From: Anaerolineales bacterium
GTDB lineage: Bacteria > Chloroflexota > Anaerolineae > Anaerolineales > Villigracilaceae
Assembly: GCA_028689195.1 (NCBI GenBank)
Contig: JAQTWR010000023.1
Coordinates: forward strand, 1-14,579
DNA: 14,579 nt
Reading direction: 5' to 3'
Below are positions 778 through 14,579 of the stretch, in pieces. Each line of letters opens with the position of its first letter. Positions within the stretch are counted from its first letter, which is position 1. The position numbers and the translations under genes were made by a program. The notes beneath the pieces are model-generated. The model was given only the letters and a program-made list of their open reading frames with translations. It had not been told where the DNA came from and made no database searches.

Positions 778-1848
778 ATGATAAAACTTCCCGGACTCAT
801 TGACCCCCACGTCCATGTGCGCGAACCCGGACAAACCCACAAAGAAGATTGGGACACCGCGACTCAATCTGCGCTTGCGGGCGGCATAACTACAATCTTG
901 GCGATGCCGAACACTAAGCCGCCGATTTTTGATTCTGCTACTTTGGATATTGCGCTGCGCGCCGCGAAACAAAACGCGCGCTGCGACTACGGTCAATTTA
1001 TCGGCGCGGGACCCCATAACGCGGACCTTCTTCCCGCGCTTGCGAATCGCGCCGTCGGGTTGAAGATGTACCTCGATTCGACTTTTGGCGAACTGCGCCT
1101 CGACGACATGACGTTATGGACGCCGCATTTCGAAAAATTCCCAAAAAATTTTCCCCTCGTCTTACATGCCGAATCAAGAACAATGGCGGCTGGGATTCTA
1201 TTCGCGGCTATTTACGACCGCCCCGTTCACATCGCGCATATTTCATTGCGCGAAGAAGTGTTGCTCATCAAAGCCGCAAAGGAAAAGGGAATCAAAGTCA
1301 CTTGCGAAGTTTGTCCGCATCATTTATTTATGACCAAAGATTCTCCTCTCCCTCAGGAAGAGGGGGCGAGGGCAAATGGACGCAAGGAAGTCCGCCCGCG
1401 TTTAGCGACCAAAGAGGATGTAGACGCGCTGTGGCAAAACCTCGCCGTGATTGATTGCTTCGCCACCGATCACGCGCCGCACACGTTGACCGAAAAAGAT
1501 TCCGATAATCCGCCGCCGGGATTCCCCGGGTTGGAAACCGCGCTCCCTTTGTTGCTTACCGCCGTTTCTGAATCTCGATTAACGATTCCCGATATTATCG
1601 AAAAGATGTTTACAAACCCCAAAAAGATTTTCAATCTTCCCGAACAGCCTGAAACGTATGTGGAGGTAGACGAAAACGCGGCGTATGAGATTAAAGCGTC
1701 CGAGCAATTTACGCGCTGCGGCTGGACTCCCTTTGAAGGGTGGAAAGTAAAAGGCAAAATCCGCAAGGTTGTGCTGCGCGGAAAGACGGCTTTCGAGGAC
1801 GGGAAGATTTTTGCCGAAGCGGGGTACGGGCGGAATATTCGGGGCTAA
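778..1848 (+). CDS. pyrC: Dihydroorotase, CAD-like
   Basis: Zinc amidohydrolase that interconverts carbamoyl-aspartate and dihydroorotate in de novo pyrimidine synthesis; cytoplasmic. The metal ligands are all present: H11 and H13 (IDPHVHVREPG), K96 as the probable carboxylated lysine (GLKMYL), H130 (LHAES), H154 (HIAHIS), and D231 with H235 (ATDHAPH). At 356 aa it is shorter than ordinary bacterial PyrC/PyrX enzymes (about 420-430). From memory, the whole length matches the DHOase domain of animal CAD unusually well, including KEEILLIKAAK-like, PPPGFPGLETALPLLLTAVS and TPFEGWKVKG stretches. The ATG at 778 is the first Met before the conserved LPGLIDPHVHVREPG; the ribosome site is weak (GAGAAAT). 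It follows the zinc-ribbon gene after 7 bp. Residues about 190-202 (SPLPQEEGARANG) look like an in-frame copy of the palindromic repeat described separately. Confidence 0.95.
   Translation: MIKLPGLIDPHVHVREPGQTHKEDWDTATQSALAGGITTILAMPNTKPPIFDSATLDIALRAAKQNARCDYGQFIGAGPHNADLLPALANRAVGLKMYLDSTFGELRLDDMTLWTPHFEKFPKNFPLVLHAESRTMAAGILFAAIYDRPVHIAHISLREEVLLIKAAKEKGIKVTCEVCPHHLFMTKDSPLPQEEGARANGRKEVRPRLATKEDVDALWQNLAVIDCFATDHAPHTLTEKDSDNPPPGFPGLETALPLLLTAVSESRLTIPDIIEKMFTNPKKIFNLPEQPETYVEVDENAAYEIKASEQFTRCGWTPFEGWKVKGKIRKVVLRGKTAFEDGKIFAEAGYGRNIRG
1345..1372 (+). repeat. Degenerate palindromic repeat inside pyrC
   Basis: An 8-bp stem with one mismatch (1345-1352 against 1356-1363, loop TCA) is followed by GGGGCGAGGG. 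Sequence and translation (SPLPQEEGARANG) resemble the repeat copies in metH. It falls in a loop of the dihydroorotase that is about 5 residues longer than my recollection of CAD. It is probably an old, decayed, in-frame copy. Confidence 0.45.
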
Positions 1849-10063: not shown

Positions 10064-10178
10064 TACTCATCCGGAGAGGCGGAGGGAACGGTCCCGCGAA
10101 GCCTCGGCAACCATGCAGCGATCGGTGATCAGTGAAGAAGGCGCTAATTTCGTCAGACGAAAGTCTGGAAGATGAGAG
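10064..10178 (+). promoter_or_regulatory. SAM-I (S-box) riboswitch
   Basis: Binds S-adenosylmethionine in the nascent transcript. The P1 helix is CTCATC (10066-10071) paired with GATGAG (10171-10176). The conserved core GAGAGGCGGAGGGAACGG then GAAGCCTCGGCAACC matches the S-box consensus, and GGCGCTAATTTC ... GGAAGATGAGAG matches the J3/4 and P4-P1 closing segment. It lies between a strong promoter and an intrinsic terminator, so high SAM should stabilise P1 and end transcription. The downstream metH, methionine synthase, is the logical target. Confidence 0.95.
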
Positions 10179-10712: not shown

Positions 10713-13700
10713 ATGACCCAACGCAAATATACCAACCGCCGTTACCTAGACGCGCTCGAAAAGAAAGTCCTCGTCTTCGATGGCGCCATGGGAACGAGCC
10801 TGCAATTGCAAAACCTGACCGCCGAACATTTTGGCGGCGAACAATACAACGGATGTAACGACTACCTCGTCATCTCATATCCGCAAGCCGTGGAAAAAGT
10901 CCATCGCGCGTTTTTCGAAGTCGGCGTGGATGTAATCGAAACAGACACCTTCCGCTCGAACCGTTTGACGATGAAAGAATACGGCTTGCAAGACCGCATC
11001 CTTGAAATCAACATGGCGGCGGCGTCATTGGCGCGTCGTTTGGCAGATGAATATTCGCGCGCTCCCTCACCCCTAGCCCCTCTCCCAAAGGGAGAGGGGC
11101 TAGGGGTGAGGGAAAGATTCGTCGCCGGTTCGATGGGACCCACGGGCAAACTTCCTTCCACCAACGACCCCGAACTTTCAAACATCGCCTACGACGAATT
11201 GATTGATATTTTCCGCGAGCAAGCCGTCGGATTAATTCGCGGCGGCGTGGATTTGCTGCTCATCGAAACCTCGCAGGATATTCTCGAAGTCAAAGCCGTC
11301 ATCAGCGGCATTCACAAAGCCTTCGACGAAACGCAAATTTACCTGCCCATTCAAGCGCAGGTCACGCTTGATACAACGGGACGCATGTTGCTCGGTACCG
11401 ACATCAACGCGTCGCTGACCATCCTTGAAGGCATGGGCATTGACGTGATCGGACTCAACTGCTCGACGGGACCCGAACACATGCGCGAGCCGATCCGCTT
11501 CCTCGGCGAAAATTCCACGCTGCCGGTTTCGTGCATTCCCAACGCGGGGCTTCCGCTCAACGTGGATGGGCAGGCTGTCTATCCGCTTGAACCTGAACCG
11601 TTTGCAAATGATCTCTATGAATTTGTGACCAAGCATAATATCTCCGTCGTTGGCGGATGCTGCGGTACAACGCCCGCGCACCTTAAAGCGTTGGTTGAAA
11701 AATTAAATAATCATCCAAGTCACAACCGTCCGTTGTCTTCGGTCGGTCGTCTGTCTTCCGCCATGTCCGCGATTGCCATGCGACAAGACCCCGCGCCAAC
11801 CCTGCTCGGCGAACGATGCAACGCCCAGGGTTCGCGCAAATTCAAACGACTGCTGCTCGAAGAAGATTACGACGGAATTTTAGACGTGGCGCGCGAACAG
11901 GTGGCGGGCGGCGCGCACGCGTTGGATATTTCTGTGGCGGTCACCGAGCGCGCCGACGAAGGCGAACTGATGCGTAAGGTCGTCAAGAAATTGCAAATGG
12001 GCGTGGATGTTCCGCTGGTGATTGACACCACCGAAGTGGACGTAATGGAAATTGCGCTGCAAACCGCGCCGGGTCGCTGCTTGATTAATTCGACTCATCT
12101 TGAATCGGGACGCGCAAAAGCGGATAAGATTTTCAGCCTCGCAAAAAAATATAACGCCGCCGTCATCGTTTTGACGATTGACGAAGCGGGCATGGCGAAA
12201 ACCGCGCAGCGCAAACTCGAAGTGGCGCAGCGCATTTACGACATTGCCGTCAACGAGCATGGACTCAAACCCGAAGATTTGGTCTTCGACGATTTAACTT
12301 TCACGCTCGCAACCGGCGACGTGGAATTTATCGACTCGGCAAAAGAAACCATTGAAGGCATTCGACTCATCAAACAAAACCTGCGCGGCGTGATGACTTC
12401 GCTTGGCGTAAGCAACCTCTCCTTTGGACTCGCGCCGCAGGCTCGTCCCGCGTTGAATTCCGTCATGTTGTATTACTGCGTGCAAGCGGGCTTGGATATG
12501 GCAATCGTCAATCCTGTGCATGTCAAACCCTACGCCGAAATTGACGCGGAAGAACGCAGCCTGTGCGAAGACTTGATTTTCAATCGCCGCGCAGACGCGC
12601 TGCAAAGATTCATCCAGCATTTTGAAACGGTCACGGTTTCAAACGAATCCACGCTCGCCGATCCCACCGAAGGCATGACCCCCGAACAACGCCTGCACTG
12701 GAAAATTTTGCACCGCTACAAAGACGGCGTCGAAGCGGATATTGACGAGATTATTAATCGTTCCCTCGCCCCTAGCCCCTCTCCCACAGGGAGAGGAGGA
12801 CAACTCGGGGCTGAGGACAAACCTCGCAAGTACAATCCTCGCATTCCCGACGCGCTCAAAGAACGCGTTCGCGAACTTCGCAAAAACTCCACTGAAGCGG
12901 AACAATTCATGTGGAGCGTTCTTCGCAACAGATCTTTCCACGACGCAAAATTCCGCCGCCAACACCCGATGGAAGGTTATATTCTGGATTTCTATTGCGA
13001 TGAAGCCAAACTTTGCGTTGAACTTGACGGCGGTCAACATAACGAAGATGAACAAGTTAAACACGATGAAGAGCGCGCAAAAATATTGTTGGAAAAGCAA
13101 GGCGTTCAAGTTGTTCGTTTTTGGAACAGCGATGTTTTGCATAAAACAGAAGAAGTGTTACATGTTCTTTGGGATATTCTTGACGAGCGACTCGCTCCCT
13201 CACCCCTAGCCCCTCTCCCTTTGGGAGAGGGGGATAACTCCCTTCCCACCTTGGGGGAAGGGTTGGGGATGAGGGCGCGTCAACACGAAATCGCCGTTCA
13301 CACATTGAACAATGTGTTGCTCCCTGCGATGAAAGAAGTGGGCGATAAATTCGGCGCGGGTGAATTGATTTTGCCCTTCGTGTTGCAATCTGCCGAGGTA
13401 ATGAAGAAGACCGTCAACCATCTTGAAAATTATCTTGAGAAGGTCGCGGGCGTTACCAAAGGCACGGTGGTCATCGCCACCGTTTACGGCGACGTGCATG
13501 ACATTGGCAAGAATCTTGTCAAAACGATTCTCGCCAATAACGGCTACACCGTGATTGACCTCGGCAAGCAGGTCCCCGCCGAAACGATCATCACCAAATC
13601 AGTGGAGGCGAACGCCACCGCCATTGGGCTTTCCGCGCTGCTGGTTTCCACTTCCAAGCAGATGCCGCTCATCGTCAACGAGATGCATCGTCGCGGACAT

Positions 13701-14579
13701 AAGATTCCCATTCTCATCGGCGGCGCGGCGATCAATCGGCGTTTTGGTCGGCGCATCCTTCAAACCGAAGACGGCTCGACTTATGAAGCGGGAGTCTTCT
13801 ATTGTAAGGATGCGTTTGAAGGTCTTGAGACGATGGATCAATTGATTGACGCGAATCGCAAGCCCGCTTTATTTGAGCAAATGCATAAAGGCGCGGAGAT
13901 GGAACTTGGACGCGCAAGCGTTCAACGTTCAAACGCGCAAACATTTGAACGTTCAAATATTATCCCCGCGCCCATTGCTTTACCATCGAAACTGGGTCAA
14001 AGAGTCGTCAAAGATATGCCGCTCGAAATGGTACTCAAACATCTCAACATGAACGAGTTGTATCGTCTTTCATGGGGCGCAAAAAATACGCACGGCGCGG
14101 AGTGGGATAAGTTGAAAAAAGAATTCGACGCGCGCCTCGCAAAGATGACCAAAGACGCGCTCAAAGACGGCTGGCTCAAACCGCAAGCCGTGTATGGATA
14201 TTTCGCCTGCCAAGCCGACGGCGACGATTTGATCCTTTACGAAAACGCCGAGAATAAAAAAGAGATTGCGCGCTTCAATTTTCCGCGCCAGCCGTATGAC
14301 GATCATCTAGCGCTGTCCGATTACTATGCCTCGGTCGAGTCTGGTCAAATGGATGTGGTCGCGCTGCAAGTCGTCACCGTTGGACTCGAAGCCACCGAGA
14401 AATTCGAGAAACTTCAAGCCGCCAACGATTACACCGAAGCCTATTTCATTCATGGGCTTGCCGTGCAAACCGCCGAAGCGACGGCGAATTATTTGCACGA
14501 ACACATCCGCCGCGAGCTGGGACTCGCCGCCGAACAGGGCAAGCGCTACTCGTGGGGCTATCCCGCCATCCCCGAGCTG
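10713..14579 (+). CDS. metH: Cobalamin-dependent methionine synthase with in-frame insertions (3' end outside window)
   Basis: Makes methionine from homocysteine and 5-methyltetrahydrofolate through methylcobalamin. The ATG at 10713 has AGGAG 8 bp upstream, and 1289 codons are open to the window edge with no stop or frameshift. Domains: homocysteine/zinc-binding, about residues 1-325 (FDGAMGTSLQLQ, GSMGPTGK, zinc ligands C250, C316, C317); pterin-binding, about 345-640 (LLGERCNAQGSRKF, VIDTTEVDVME, VSNLSFGL); cobalamin cap from about 855 (LNNVLLPAMKEVGDKFGAGE); cobalamin domain with lower-ligand motif D927-x-H929-x2-G932, then GLSALLVSTSKQMP and LIGGAAINRRFGRR; and the SAM-dependent activation domain with GYFACQADGDDLILY and RYSWGYPAIPEL at the edge. 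Insertions: 17 residues at about 118-134, 171 residues at about 684-854 carrying a DUF559 nuclease domain, and a short repeat at about 1070-1083. Catalytic motifs remain intact, so the protein may still work. Controlled by the upstream SAM-I riboswitch. Confidence 0.95.
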   Translation, partial: MTQRKYTNRRYLDALEKKVLVFDGAMGTSLQLQNLTAEHFGGEQYNGCNDYLVISYPQAVEKVHRAFFEVGVDVIETDTFRSNRLTMKEYGLQDRILEINMAAASLARRLADEYSRAPSPLAPLPKGEGLGVRERFVAGSMGPTGKLPSTNDPELSNIAYDELIDIFREQAVGLIRGGVDLLLIETSQDILEVKAVISGIHKAFDETQIYLPIQAQVTLDTTGRMLLGTDINASLTILEGMGIDVIGLNCSTGPEHMREPIRFLGENSTLPVSCIPNAGLPLNVDGQAVYPLEPEPFANDLYEFVTKHNISVVGGCCGTTPAHLKALVEKLNNHPSHNRPLSSVGRLSSAMSAIAMRQDPAPTLLGERCNAQGSRKFKRLLLEEDYDGILDVAREQVAGGAHALDISVAVTERADEGELMRKVVKKLQMGVDVPLVIDTTEVDVMEIALQTAPGRCLINSTHLESGRAKADKIFSLAKKYNAAVIVLTIDEAGMAKTAQRKLEVAQRIYDIAVNEHGLKPEDLVFDDLTFTLATGDVEFIDSAKETIEGIRLIKQNLRGVMTSLGVSNLSFGLAPQARPALNSVMLYYCVQAGLDMAIVNPVHVKPYAEIDAEERSLCEDLIFNRRADALQRFIQHFETVTVSNESTLADPTEGMTPEQRLHWKILHRYKDGVEADIDEIINRSLAPSPSPTGRGGQLGAEDKPRKYNPRIPDALKERVRELRKNSTEAEQFMWSVLRNRSFHDAKFRRQHPMEGYILDFYCDEAKLCVELDGGQHNEDEQVKHDEERAKILLEKQGVQVVRFWNSDVLHKTEEVLHVLWDILDERLAPSPLAPLPLGEGDNSLPTLGEGLGMRARQHEIAVHTLNNVLLPAMKEVGDKFGAGELILPFVLQSAEVMKKTVNHLENYLEKVAGVTKGTVVIATVYGDVHDIGKNLVKTILANNGYTVIDLGKQVPAETIITKSVEANATAIGLSALLVSTSKQMPLIVNEMHRRGHKIPILIGGAAINRRFGRRILQTEDGSTYEAGVFYCKDAFEGLETMDQLIDANRKPALFEQMHKGAEMELGRASVQRSNAQTFERSNIIPAPIALPSKLGQRVVKDMPLEMVLKHLNMNELYRLSWGAKNTHGAEWDKLKKEFDARLAKMTKDALKDGWLKPQAVYGYFACQADGDDLILYENAENKKEIARFNFPRQPYDDHLALSDYYASVESGQMDVVALQVVTVGLEATEKFEKLQAANDYTEAYFIHGLAVQTAEATANYLHEHIRRELGLAAEQGKRYSWGYPAIPEL
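11063..11113. repeat. Near-perfect 51-bp palindrome inside the homocysteine domain of metH
   Basis: Arms 11064-11086 and 11090-11112 are exact 23-bp reverse complements, the flanking T-A pair extends the stem to 24 bp, and the loop is AAA. The length of 51 bp equals 17 codons, adding PSPLAPLPKGEGLGVRE between a helix end (RRLADEYSR) and the conserved FVAGSMGPTGK. It contains no stop in the metH frame. Confidence 0.97.
12763..12816. repeat. Left bounding palindrome of the metH insertion
   Basis: Left arm 12763-12785 differs from the copy at 11064-11086 by one base (CCCTCG for CCCTCA). The loop is ACA. The right side pairs exactly for 8 bp (GGGAGAGG, 12789-12796), then carries extra bases before an imperfect CTCGGGGCTGAGG. 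It is read in a different codon phase from the 11063 copy (SLAPSPSPTGRGGQLGAE) and is still open. Confidence 0.9.
12843..13187 (+). other. DUF559 (Vsr-like, PD-(D/E)XK fold) nuclease domain fused inside MetH
   Basis: MetH residues about 711-825. The domain runs from IPDALKERVRELRKNSTEAE through MWSVLRNRSFHDAKFRRQHP, GYILDFYC and KLCVELDGGQH to VVRFWNSDVL and a closing helix VLHVLWDIL. These are the hallmarks of DUF559 proteins, a family related to the Vsr very-short-patch-repair endonuclease. Candidate metal and catalytic residues are intact: D759 in LDFYC, E770 and D772 in VELDGGQH, and H775; the N-terminal Glu in STEAEQ is also present. At about 115 residues it is the full size of a free-standing DUF559 protein. 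No separate ribosome site and start precede it, so it can only be made as part of MetH unless cleaved. Activity and target are unknown. Confidence 0.9.
13197..13275. repeat. Right bounding palindrome of the metH insertion, with nested hairpin
   Basis: Left arm 13197-13219 is identical to 11064-11086. The loop is TTT and the return arm GGGAGAGG (13223-13230). A second hairpin, CCCTTCCC (13240-13247) with GGGGAAGGG (13254-13262), then interrupts before the outer stem resumes imperfectly with TTGGGGATGAGGG (13263-13275). All of it is open in the metH frame (SPLAPLPLGEGDNS, then LPTLGEGLGMRAR). Confidence 0.9.
13919..13956. repeat. CGTTCAA repeat with 10-bp inverted repeat in the metH linker
   Basis: CGTTCAA occurs three times (13919, 13926, 13950), and AACGTTCAAA (13924-13933) is the exact complement of TTTGAACGTT (13944-13953). 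It encodes VQRSNAQTFERSN in the flexible linker between the cobalamin and activation domains, in frame. It is a different repeat family from the CCCTCACCCC palindromes. Confidence 0.75.

What the first reader, a model, noticed from the sequence alone, without database searches (positions are those of the whole stretch)
12763..13275. Complete DUF559 nuclease domain inserted in frame inside methionine synthase
Seen: the metH frame runs unbroken through 171 extra codons that encode an intact DUF559 domain (D759, E770, D772, H775), placed exactly at the linker between pterin domain and cobalamin cap. Known: DUF559 proteins are Vsr-like PD-(D/E)XK nuclease relatives and MetH normally has nothing here. 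Inference: a nuclease-carrying selfish element has colonised an essential gene like a homing element, but with no intein or intron machinery, surviving because a domain junction tolerates an inserted fold. If the fusion is translated whole, MetH would carry a DNA-cleaving domain as a passenger.
Basis: partly seen in the sequence, partly recalled or inferred. Interest (0 to 1): 0.92.

Follow-up and report, generated by a model that had tools for sequence, protein, structure and literature searches.

The report
In-frame mobile nuclease inside methionine synthase
A small DNA-cutting-enzyme domain, bordered on both sides by short hairpin-forming repeats, sits in frame inside a bacterium's methionine synthase gene, and the same unit turns up in frame inside many unrelated genes of distant bacteria, so it looks like an undescribed kind of mobile element that lives inside working genes without being spliced out.

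Summary
In detail: metH (10713-14579) reads unbroken through an intact DUF559 domain (12855-13172). The insert is more than DUF559: a G/C-rich palindrome lies on each side and is translated with it; another copy sits alone, in frame, in the same gene. The palindrome matches a repeat known in over 260 bacterial genomes (the 'triplex motif' of Holder 2015); I found no described mobiliser for it. Of 39 genomes with metH, 33 lack the insert. It moves: 61 fused and 33 empty MetH need at least 13 gains or losses, and insert and host trees conflict (AU p=2.8e-48). The same unit lies in frame inside HrpA, MetRS, LeuRS, ValRS, RecG, HsdM, MmeI and others in several phyla; hairpins flank it in 66/79 and 58/75 loci versus 4/140 control stretches. 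Genomes with this DUF559 clade are rich in the palindrome (10/10 versus 5/149). Active-site residues are near-invariant; the nearest solved folds are a DUF559 protein and homing endonuclease I-Bth0305I. Best reading: a palindrome-bounded, unspliced, in-frame homing-like element. Mobility is well supported by comparison; nuclease-driven homing is inferred. No intein or catalogued intron was found. Nothing was tested at the bench.

The parts
10713..14579 (+). metH (cobalamin-dependent methionine synthase) with the insert; 3' end off the contig
   Evidence: open frame; Pfam domains; NCBIfam TIGR02082 above cut-off, in 2 stretches
12763..12802 (.). left palindrome of the element: CCCTCGCCCCTAG arm plus CCTCTCCCACAGGGAGAGG hairpin (12778-12796); translated as LAPSPSPTGRGG
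   Evidence: repeat family D1/D2; hairpin z -2.0, 9 of 200 shuffles fold as well; pattern hit
12855..13181 (+). DUF559 nuclease domain, in the metH frame; D759, E770, D772, H776
   Evidence: PF04480 E 3.7e-34 at 12855-13172; A2 profile 172 bits at 12855-13181 (the window's own domain is a row of A2); AF2 model pLDDT 89.9
13196..13240 (.). right palindrome of the element: CCCTCACCCCTAG arm plus CCTCTCCCTTTGGGAGAGG hairpin (13212-13230); translated as LAPSPLAPLPLGEG
   Evidence: repeat family D1; hairpin z -2.4, 6 of 200 shuffles fold as well
13241..13276 (.). possible degenerate further repeat at the right edge (translated SLPTLGEGLGMR)
   Evidence: read by eye from the sequence; similar peptide in other fused MetH
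11063..11113 (.). solo palindrome without a nuclease, in frame in the homocysteine-methyltransferase domain: 24-bp perfect arms, 3-nt loop
   Evidence: inverted repeat I4; fold z -10.9; by eye, palindrome-type peptide at this loop in 4 of 5 readable fused genomes and in none of 22 readable insert-free genomes
13287..13427 (+). cobalamin cap domain (PF02607), the part downstream of the insert
   Evidence: profile 29-74 here against 4-74 unbroken in G026 and G029
1343..1382 (.). degenerate copy of the palindrome inside the dihydroorotase-like ORF 778-1848
   Evidence: repeat I3/D2; one-mismatch pattern hit; gene name recalled from the sequence, not searched

Best explanation
The insert is one copy of a palindrome-bounded mobile element: [G/C-rich palindrome]-[DUF559 nuclease of the EDxHD/Vsr-like fold]-[palindrome], open from end to end in the nuclease's own frame. 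Shown by comparison: it is absent from most related metH genes, is exchanged between metH genes at one site, occurs in frame in many unrelated genes of distant bacteria, keeps its active site, and its genomes are rich in the solo palindrome. Inferred: the nuclease cuts an insert-free allele at a conserved coding site and repair copies the element in (homing); it survives without splicing because it lands in loops or domain junctions, its palindromes translate into flexible Pro/Gly/Ser-rich linkers, and the host enzyme keeps working around it. Rarer jumps to new genes, and the spread of solo palindromes, are probably driven by the same nuclease acting on the hairpins, much as RAYT proteins are thought to move REP sequences (recalled).
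For: No insert in 33 of 39 genomes with metH; fused and empty MetH interleave, 15 changes, at least 13 forced by starred branches. Insert and host histories conflict: P0027/P0045 host 95% but insert 74% identical, P0018/P0069 90/68, P0009/P0013 80/95, with the change at the insert; AU rejects the host topology for the insert (p 2.8e-48) and the reverse (4e-5). Same unit in other genes: of 121 domains in 120 listed long proteins, 112 have repeat-type peptides on both sides, control 33 of 360 windows (pattern written after seeing the peptides); of 80 named loci, 60 have a host domain in the same ORF (labels in 78). DNA hairpins of arm >=9: 66/79 upstream, 58/75 downstream, control 4/140. Against K-12: HrpA insert between residues 241 and 242, another HrpA copy after 614, RecG after 414, LeuRS after 363. 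Fused valS, leuS and metG are the only copies found in six genomes. D46, E57, D59 77/77 and H63 76/77 in MetH inserts; median pN/pS 0.23 insert, 0.24 host. Palindrome copy number >=8 in 10/10 genomes with this DUF559 clade, 5/149 others. Nearest solved sequences and folds: 3hrl (DUF559) and I-Bth0305I. Inserts group by host gene and site more than chance (27 changes, shuffled mean 45.5).
Against: No cleavage, target site or transposition was shown. Within metH the inserts form essentially one clade and insert and host identities correlate (rho 0.66), so inheritance with loss explains part of the pattern. Inserts also group by organism (17 changes, shuffled 35.4). Five genomes without the clade have 8 or more palindromes, and E. 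coli K-12 is reported to have 23 related motifs. G047 has a solo palindrome at the metH site with no insert there, so palindromes can be present without the nuclease. G042's metH insert has no match to the strict palindrome pattern in its flanks, only weaker hairpins and repeat-like peptides; the uvrA-like cases likewise. The palindrome count test is not corrected for relatedness, its 150-bit cut was chosen after seeing the scores, and G062 was chosen because it carries a fused metG. The AF2 model of the MetH fragment is weak overall (pTM 0.36).
Confidence: 0.68

Rival explanations
1. Repeat-driven cassette: the palindromes are the mobile or recombinogenic agents (triplex or hairpin instability), and a DUF559 gene caught between two copies is carried along by recombination or replication slippage; nuclease activity plays no part in movement.
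For: Solo palindromes are far commoner than DUF559 copies (47 sites with up to 2 mismatches in G000 against 1 DUF559); Holder 2015 reports that the motif's loci are rearranged more often (abstract); G047 has a solo palindrome at the metH site; five genomes are palindrome-rich without the clade.
Against: Active site and domain under purifying selection about as strong as MetH; only one DUF559 clade is tied to the palindrome, a commoner clade of the same genus has no full palindrome in its flanks; genomes with the clade have many more palindromes.
Confidence: 0.2
2. Ancestral fusion with many losses: the domain entered metH once in an ancestor and has been lost repeatedly.
For: MetH inserts form nearly one clade and correlate with host identity.
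Against: Would need many precise in-frame losses; strongly different inserts in 90-95% identical MetH hosts and AU rejection; near-identical hosts P0024 (fused) and G029 (empty); the inserts of P0078, P0080 and P0083 (two of them UvrD-like by Pfam) nest next to the metH insert of G042.
Confidence: 0.07
3. Domesticated domain: the host keeps DUF559 for a benefit, for example DNA repair, defence or regulation of MetH.
For: Purifying selection and long persistence at one site.
Against: Hosts are unrelated in function (MetH, HrpA, MetRS, RecG, HsdM, Mur ligase), and presence is patchy among close relatives.
Confidence: 0.04
4. Intein or self-splicing intron that was missed.
For: In-frame insertion into conserved genes with patchy distribution.
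Against: No Hint/intein family among the Pfam hits of the fused MetH, LeuRS and RecG or in the NCBIfam rows shown (for RecG only the best 25 of 48); the one Rfam hit over 53,571 bases of 7 sources is a SAM riboswitch, no intron.
Confidence: 0.01

Closest known systems
EDxHD homing endonuclease I-Bth0305I (PDB 3r3p)
   Same: Related catalytic domain by profile (E 0.0033) and by fold (Foldseek E 8e-4, TMt 0.73); patchy, site-specific presence in coding genes
   Different: I-Bth0305I is named a mobile-intron protein and described as a long multi-domain protein (passages); here a bare catalytic domain is translated in the host's own frame, with no splicing found and with palindromic borders
DUF559 proteins (PDB 3hrl; E. 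coli YcjD)
   Same: Same Pfam family; ycjD of K-12 ends in a half palindrome, with a full one about 165 bp beyond
   Different: Annotated as domain of unknown function; not described as mobile or gene-embedded in the listings of the searches made
Rickettsia palindromic elements (RPE)
   Same: Palindromic DNA inserted in frame in unrelated genes and translated with the host (passages of PMC10969869)
   Different: About 150 bp in that account, and the passages read name no nuclease; ours carries a nuclease between two palindromes and spans several phyla
REP/BIME sequences with RAYT transposases
   Same: Short palindromes of many copies tied to one gene (start of the abstract of PMC2817692 in the listing)
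   Different: RAYTs are tyrosine transposases (title) and REPs are extragenic; here a PD-(D/E)XK-like domain in coding frames
ShiLan insertion in phage methylases (PMC11855218)
   Same: Homing insertion in a host gene with no detected splicing, patchy spread (abstract and section 1.3)
   Different: HNH nuclease hidden in another frame, phage hosts, no palindromic borders mentioned in what I read
G/C-rich intrastrand triplex motif (Holder 2015, PMC4666352)
   Same: The window's palindromes match its layout (CCCTCTCCC-loop-GGGAGAGGG-CTA-GGGGTGAGGG, one with a one-base variant); over 260 genomes
   Different: Reported in E. coli as always intergenic and not found with mobile elements; here also in coding frames and tied to a nuclease

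Membership tests
DUF559 (PF04480) | Profile match above curated cut-off | tested here: met
   118 and 113 bits against 20.6
DUF559 (PF04480) | Conserved D..E-x-D...H residues (taken from the alignments here) | tested here: met
   D759, E770, D772, H776; near-invariant in 202 domains of three partly overlapping sets
EDxHD homing endonuclease | Catalytic-domain similarity to I-Bth0305I | tested here: met
EDxHD homing endonuclease | Site-specific cleavage of the empty allele | not testable with these tools
   no biochemistry
EDxHD homing endonuclease | Patchy presence at one site with horizontal exchange | tested here: met
EDxHD homing endonuclease | Additional DNA-binding region beside the catalytic domain | tested here: not met
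   flanks are repeat-encoded linkers of low pLDDT; no other domain in the insert. Hence 'works like', not filed as a member
Intein | Hint splicing domain | tested here: not met
Group I/II intron | Intron RNA structure | tested here: not met
   no Rfam intron match in 7 sources
Rickettsia palindromic element | Palindrome in frame in unrelated genes | tested here: met
   7 of 15 exact palindromes of G000 lie well inside long ORFs, 3 of them in metH (longest of six frames, other genes not identified)
Rickettsia palindromic element | RPE sequence family | not tested
   no RPE sequence compared
REP/RAYT | RAYT tyrosine transposase in the unit | tested here: not met
   the only domain found in the insert is DUF559, with the related MTES_1575 model

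The most novel reading that the evidence does not exclude
A widespread, undescribed class of autonomous mobile elements, palindrome-DUF559-palindrome, inserts in frame and unspliced into essential genes across several phyla, homes between alleles, and is the source and mobiliser of the known G/C-rich 'triplex motif' repeats, E. coli's included.
Probability: 0.5. Interest if true: 0.93.

Novelty: new variant of a known kind. Interest (0 to 1): 0.86.

Why it matters
It would add another way for a selfish nuclease to live inside essential genes, besides inteins and introns: not being removed at all, but being tolerated as an extra domain. It offers a mobiliser for a hairpin repeat known in over 260 bacterial genomes, a route by which proteins acquire new domains and linkers, and a warning that some 'DUF559 domain-containing' annotations hide an enzyme such as methionine synthase or methionyl-tRNA synthetase plus a passenger. 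The homing step can be tested in ordinary laboratory E. coli.

Tried and rejected
Assembly chimera: rejected, same junction region in many independent records. Ancestral shared domain: rejected, no DUF559 match in 33 of 39 metH ORFs (eight of the 33 are cut short or had no simple anchor, and their state rests on the profile scan). All DUF559 being tied to the palindrome: rejected, a commoner free-standing clade (19 tree rows, one gene twice; 18 of same-genus genomes and one, L016, of another family) has no full palindrome in its 300-bp flanks, though a few have a half motif. Palindromes as a pre-existing target: mostly rejected, the half motif is missing at 31 of 32 empty metH sites examined (five of these by a fixed 135-base window; one site had no anchor); G047 has a solo palindrome there, four other sites have unrelated hairpins of arm >=8, and G008 has a remnant-like stretch. 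Spread by phage or plasmid: not supported at the limits used, no hit at E 1e-15 in 50,697 phage records, and 3 of 72,556 plasmid records at 1e-20, two of them 4.8-4.9 Mb long. A clean empty site of ycjD within E. coli: inconclusive, one place covers >=80% of the region in 3362 of 5426 genomes, but the two strains without it that I opened at this spot carry an efflux operon (one search turned out to be another palindrome place). dN/dS by Nei-Gojobori: dS saturated for most pairs (23 of 105 finite), so I rely on pN/pS. AF2 of the MetH fragment: DUF559 fold clear, domain packing not reliable. Sole-copy test of metG by PF00133 was not adequate (it did not list the fused metG of G062); repeated with PF09334, which gives one full-length match per genome in 4 of 4. 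Direct residue-by-residue placing of the window's insert on E. coli MetH: not clean at 36% identity. Literature: DUF559 alone (14 papers), DUF559+palindromic (2), mixed homing/Vsr/palindrome terms (20 of 9,676 listed), palindromic element in-frame (3), CCCTCTCCC+palindrom (9), EDxHD (11), RPE terms (10 of 4,567 listed), domain-insertion terms (0), Vsr/REP terms (10 of 72 listed): no description of this element seen in the listings; the library lacks most subscription journals.

Rows dropped or mislabelled: 61 of 120 proteins passed the strict full-length MetH rule; P0028 failed it by one residue and was labelled 'otherlong'. Seven near-identical rows were dropped before the AU test (54 of 61). 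One of 80 loci with an internal stop was dropped from the tree (79). L087 is the contig of G033, and L096 and L099 seem to be those of G038 and G041. A2, the profile used for the clade count, contains the window's own domain and those of L096 and L099. Host labels were assigned by me; several loci have no taxon label. In one search the script reported the same palindrome for L180 and L181; that 13212-13230 is in the metH frame is read.
Full report
WHAT IS THERE. metH at 10713-14579 is one open frame of 1289 residues that runs off the contig. Its domain order is homocysteine transferase, pterin-binding, DUF559, cap, B12-binding, activation. DUF559 (residues 715-820) is the only one found in the 2.85-Mb, 82% complete genome. 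On either side lie two copies of one repeat, at 12758-12806 and 13192-13240, and a third copy at 11059-11113 lies alone in the same gene. The third has perfect 24-bp arms with a 3-nt loop and folds far better than its shuffles (z -10.9); the two element copies fold only modestly better (z -2.0 and -2.4). All are translated in frame, as LAPSPSPTGRGG, LAPSPLAPLPLGEG and APSPLAPLPKGEGLGVRER. The insert-free relatives G026 and G029 match the cap model unbroken (profile 4-74), but here only 29-74 match, after the insert, so the insert splits the cap domain. AlphaFold2 gives the DUF559 domain alone a confident fold (pLDDT 89.9); in the larger MetH fragment the two repeat-encoded stretches are among the lowest-confidence parts (about 30), while the overall packing is unreliable (pTM 0.36).

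EMPTY SITES AND MOBILITY IN METH. Of 61 genomes searched (the window's own, 36 of the same genus, 24 of the same order), 39 have a metH match over this region; 6 carry the insert (G000, G011, G012, G033, G034, G042) and 33 do not (a profile scan of the 39 ORFs finds DUF559 in just those 6). In 32 empty sites examined the CTCTCCC/GGGAGAG half motif is present only in G047, which has a solo palindrome at the site; G008 has a remnant-like stretch. In a tree of the host part of 61 fused and 33 empty MetH the trait needs 15 changes, at least 13 forced by well-supported branches (shuffled mean 27.4). P0024 (fused) and G029 (empty) are near-identical sisters. The insert's own history differs from the host's: P0027/P0045 are 95% identical in the host part and 74% in the insert, P0018/P0069 90% and 68%, P0009/P0013 80% and 95%, with the change at the insert region. 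With 54 sequences the insert data reject the host topology (AU p 2.8e-48) and the host data reject the insert topology (4e-5). Against this, insert and host identity still correlate (rho 0.66) and metH inserts form nearly one clade, with only P0078, P0080 and P0083 (UvrD-like hosts for the first two) nested in it, beside P0028, which is a MetH that my rule mislabelled. So once at this site the insert is partly inherited and partly exchanged.

THE SAME UNIT ELSEWHERE. A protein search with the insert region of MetH returned 175 long proteins, 120 listed. All 120 listed contain the domain. Of their 121 domains, 112 have repeat-type peptides within 70 residues on both sides; the same pattern, written after seeing the peptides, occurs in 33 of 360 control windows of these proteins. 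Besides MetH the hosts include class I tRNA synthetases, UvrD-like proteins, HrpA, type I restriction R subunits, radical-SAM proteins, Mur ligases and DNA methylases (some Pfam names recalled from accessions). This search admits only long proteins, so it cannot give the share of embedded copies. A scan of named genomes without such a length filter kept the best 80 of at least 565 confirmed stretches, ranked by likeness to the window's domain: by record title Chloroflexi, Beta-, Gamma- and Alphaproteobacteria, Mariprofundus, Geobacter and relatives, Nitrospirae, Planctomycetes, Kapabacteria and Bacillota (class names of genera recalled). Sixteen are free-standing; 64 have 60 or more codons beyond the domain on at least one side; 60 share an ORF with a recognised host domain (labels): MetH 11, HrpA 5, MetRS 8, LeuRS 1, ValRS 2, HsdM 8, HsdR 2, HsdS 1, MmeI-type 7, other methylases 6, Mur ligase 3, and RecG, UvrD, PIG-L, APH, FtsJ and RimM 1 each (in the RimM case the domain is at the ORF's start, perhaps only an open reading frame upstream). 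In Stagnimonas aquatica MetH the insert sits at another junction, between the B12-binding and activation domains. Hairpins with perfect arms of 9 or more lie within 250 bp upstream in 66 of 79 and downstream in 58 of 75 loci with enough sequence, but in 4 of 140 control stretches 1250-1500 bp away. Against E. coli K-12 proteins several insertions are clean: 187 residues between HrpA 241 and 242, 205 after HrpA 614 in another genome, and inserts after RecG 414 and LeuRS 363.

HOSTS MUST WORK WITH THE INSERT. In G043 the fused valS and in a Nevskia genome (G061) the fused leuS are the only ones of their kind among the class I synthetase matches, by my reading of frame lengths and matched parts. 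In four further genomes (G062-G065) the MetRS model gives one full-length match each, and it is the fused gene. G000 has one metH match. No intein domain is listed by Pfam or NCBIfam and no intron by Rfam. Several of these genomes are incomplete metagenome assemblies.

SELECTION. In 77 MetH inserts D46, E57 and D59 are invariant and H63 is 76 of 77; in 45 other long proteins all four are invariant, and in 80 genome loci D59 is 78 of 80 and the rest invariant. Median pN/pS is 0.23 for the insert and 0.24 for the host part over 105 pairs; dS is saturated in most pairs. A mere passenger would be expected to keep the frame but lose the active site.

THE PALINDROME AND THE NUCLEASE. The exact pattern CCTCTCCCNNNGGGAGAGG is found in 39 of 61 genomes, its reversed control in none. 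A profile of this DUF559 clade separates 9 of the 61 genomes (158 bits or more, the next 133) and one of 98 in an unrelated family (153 bits, the next 138; that genome was chosen because it carries a fused metG). All 10 have 8 or more palindromes, against 5 of the other 149 (Fisher p 1.4e-12; within the genus alone Mann-Whitney p 0.001; not corrected for relatedness, cut chosen after seeing the scores). A different, commoner DUF559 clade in the same genus has no full palindrome in its flanks. In G000, 47 palindromes with up to 2 mismatches occur (control 0), and 7 of 15 exact ones are well inside long ORFs. The window's palindromes fit the G/C-rich triplex motif of Holder 2015 (abstract, two results sections and passages read), reported in more than 260 genomes, in E. 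coli always intergenic and without link to mobile elements; the main text held does not contain 'endonuclease' or 'DUF'. Enterobacter sp. 638 has 100 copies of such a palindrome, read there as presumable terminators (passages). In E. coli K-12 the DUF559 gene ycjD ends in a half palindrome, with a full motif about 165 bp beyond, whose position and sequence fit motif number 9 of the Holder table.

HOW IT PROBABLY WORKS. Shown: mobility among metH alleles, many host genes, palindromic borders, intact active site, structural kinship to the catalytic domain of homing endonuclease I-Bth0305I (Foldseek E 8e-4, and 3hrl 1e-7; Vsr only 0.27; sequence profile). Inserts group by host gene and site more than expected (27 changes, shuffled 45.5), as homing lineages do, though also by organism (17, shuffled 35.4). 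Inferred: cutting of the empty allele and repair from the filled one; rare jumps to new genes and spread of solo palindromes through the hairpins. The bare domain lacks the extra DNA-binding regions of known EDxHD enzymes (passages), so specificity may come from dimerisation, the host protein or the hairpin; this is open. The lack of close phage or plasmid copies suggests spread by uptake of chromosomal DNA.

NOVELTY. Known relatives in concept are Rickettsia palindromic elements (in frame, no nuclease named in the passages read), REP/RAYT (palindromes with a different enzyme, listing), and the ShiLan insertion (unspliced but out-of-frame HNH). I saw no description of a palindrome-bounded, in-frame DUF559 element in the listings of nine literature searches. 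I class it as a new variant of a known kind (homing-like element), with an even chance that it deserves a class of its own.

Noticed in passing
window 10064-10178 (+): SAM riboswitch (RF00162, 67 bits) upstream of a short ORF and metH, so metH is probably under S-box control.
   Followed up: no
metH loop near residue 117 in G001, G019, G029, G033, G035: Other repeat-like peptides (such as SRISNTDSRISH) lie in frame in the same loop where G000, G012, G034 and G042 carry a palindrome-type peptide; a possible hotspot for several in-frame repeat families.
   Followed up: partly
metH insertion site in G031 and G032: Unrelated perfect hairpins (arms 12 and 11) lie where others carry the DUF559 element.
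   Followed up: no
G017:C1:964379-979556, G029:C5:633-8207, G001:C8:43295-65691: Clusters of many partial and broken DUF559 copies in a row; these genomes also have many palindromes (64, 22, 36) without the embedded-type clade.
   Followed up: no
P0015 (class I tRNA synthetase, 1243 aa): Two separate DUF559 domains in one synthetase.
   Followed up: no
L039 (G047) and L041 (G060): uvrA-like genes of two genera of one family share an in-frame DUF559 of a more distant clade flanked by a different low-complexity repeat (gene name recalled from reading the sequence).
   Followed up: partly
L161 (Gallionella HrpA): Besides the 205-residue insert after E. coli residue 614, a 46-residue gap falls at the 241/242 site used by other HrpA inserts, perhaps a remnant.
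   Followed up: no
E. coli fabI-sapF interval: The ycjD region is present over 80% in 3362 of 5426 E. coli genomes; two opened strains without it carry a TetR/RND efflux operon at that place.
   Followed up: partly
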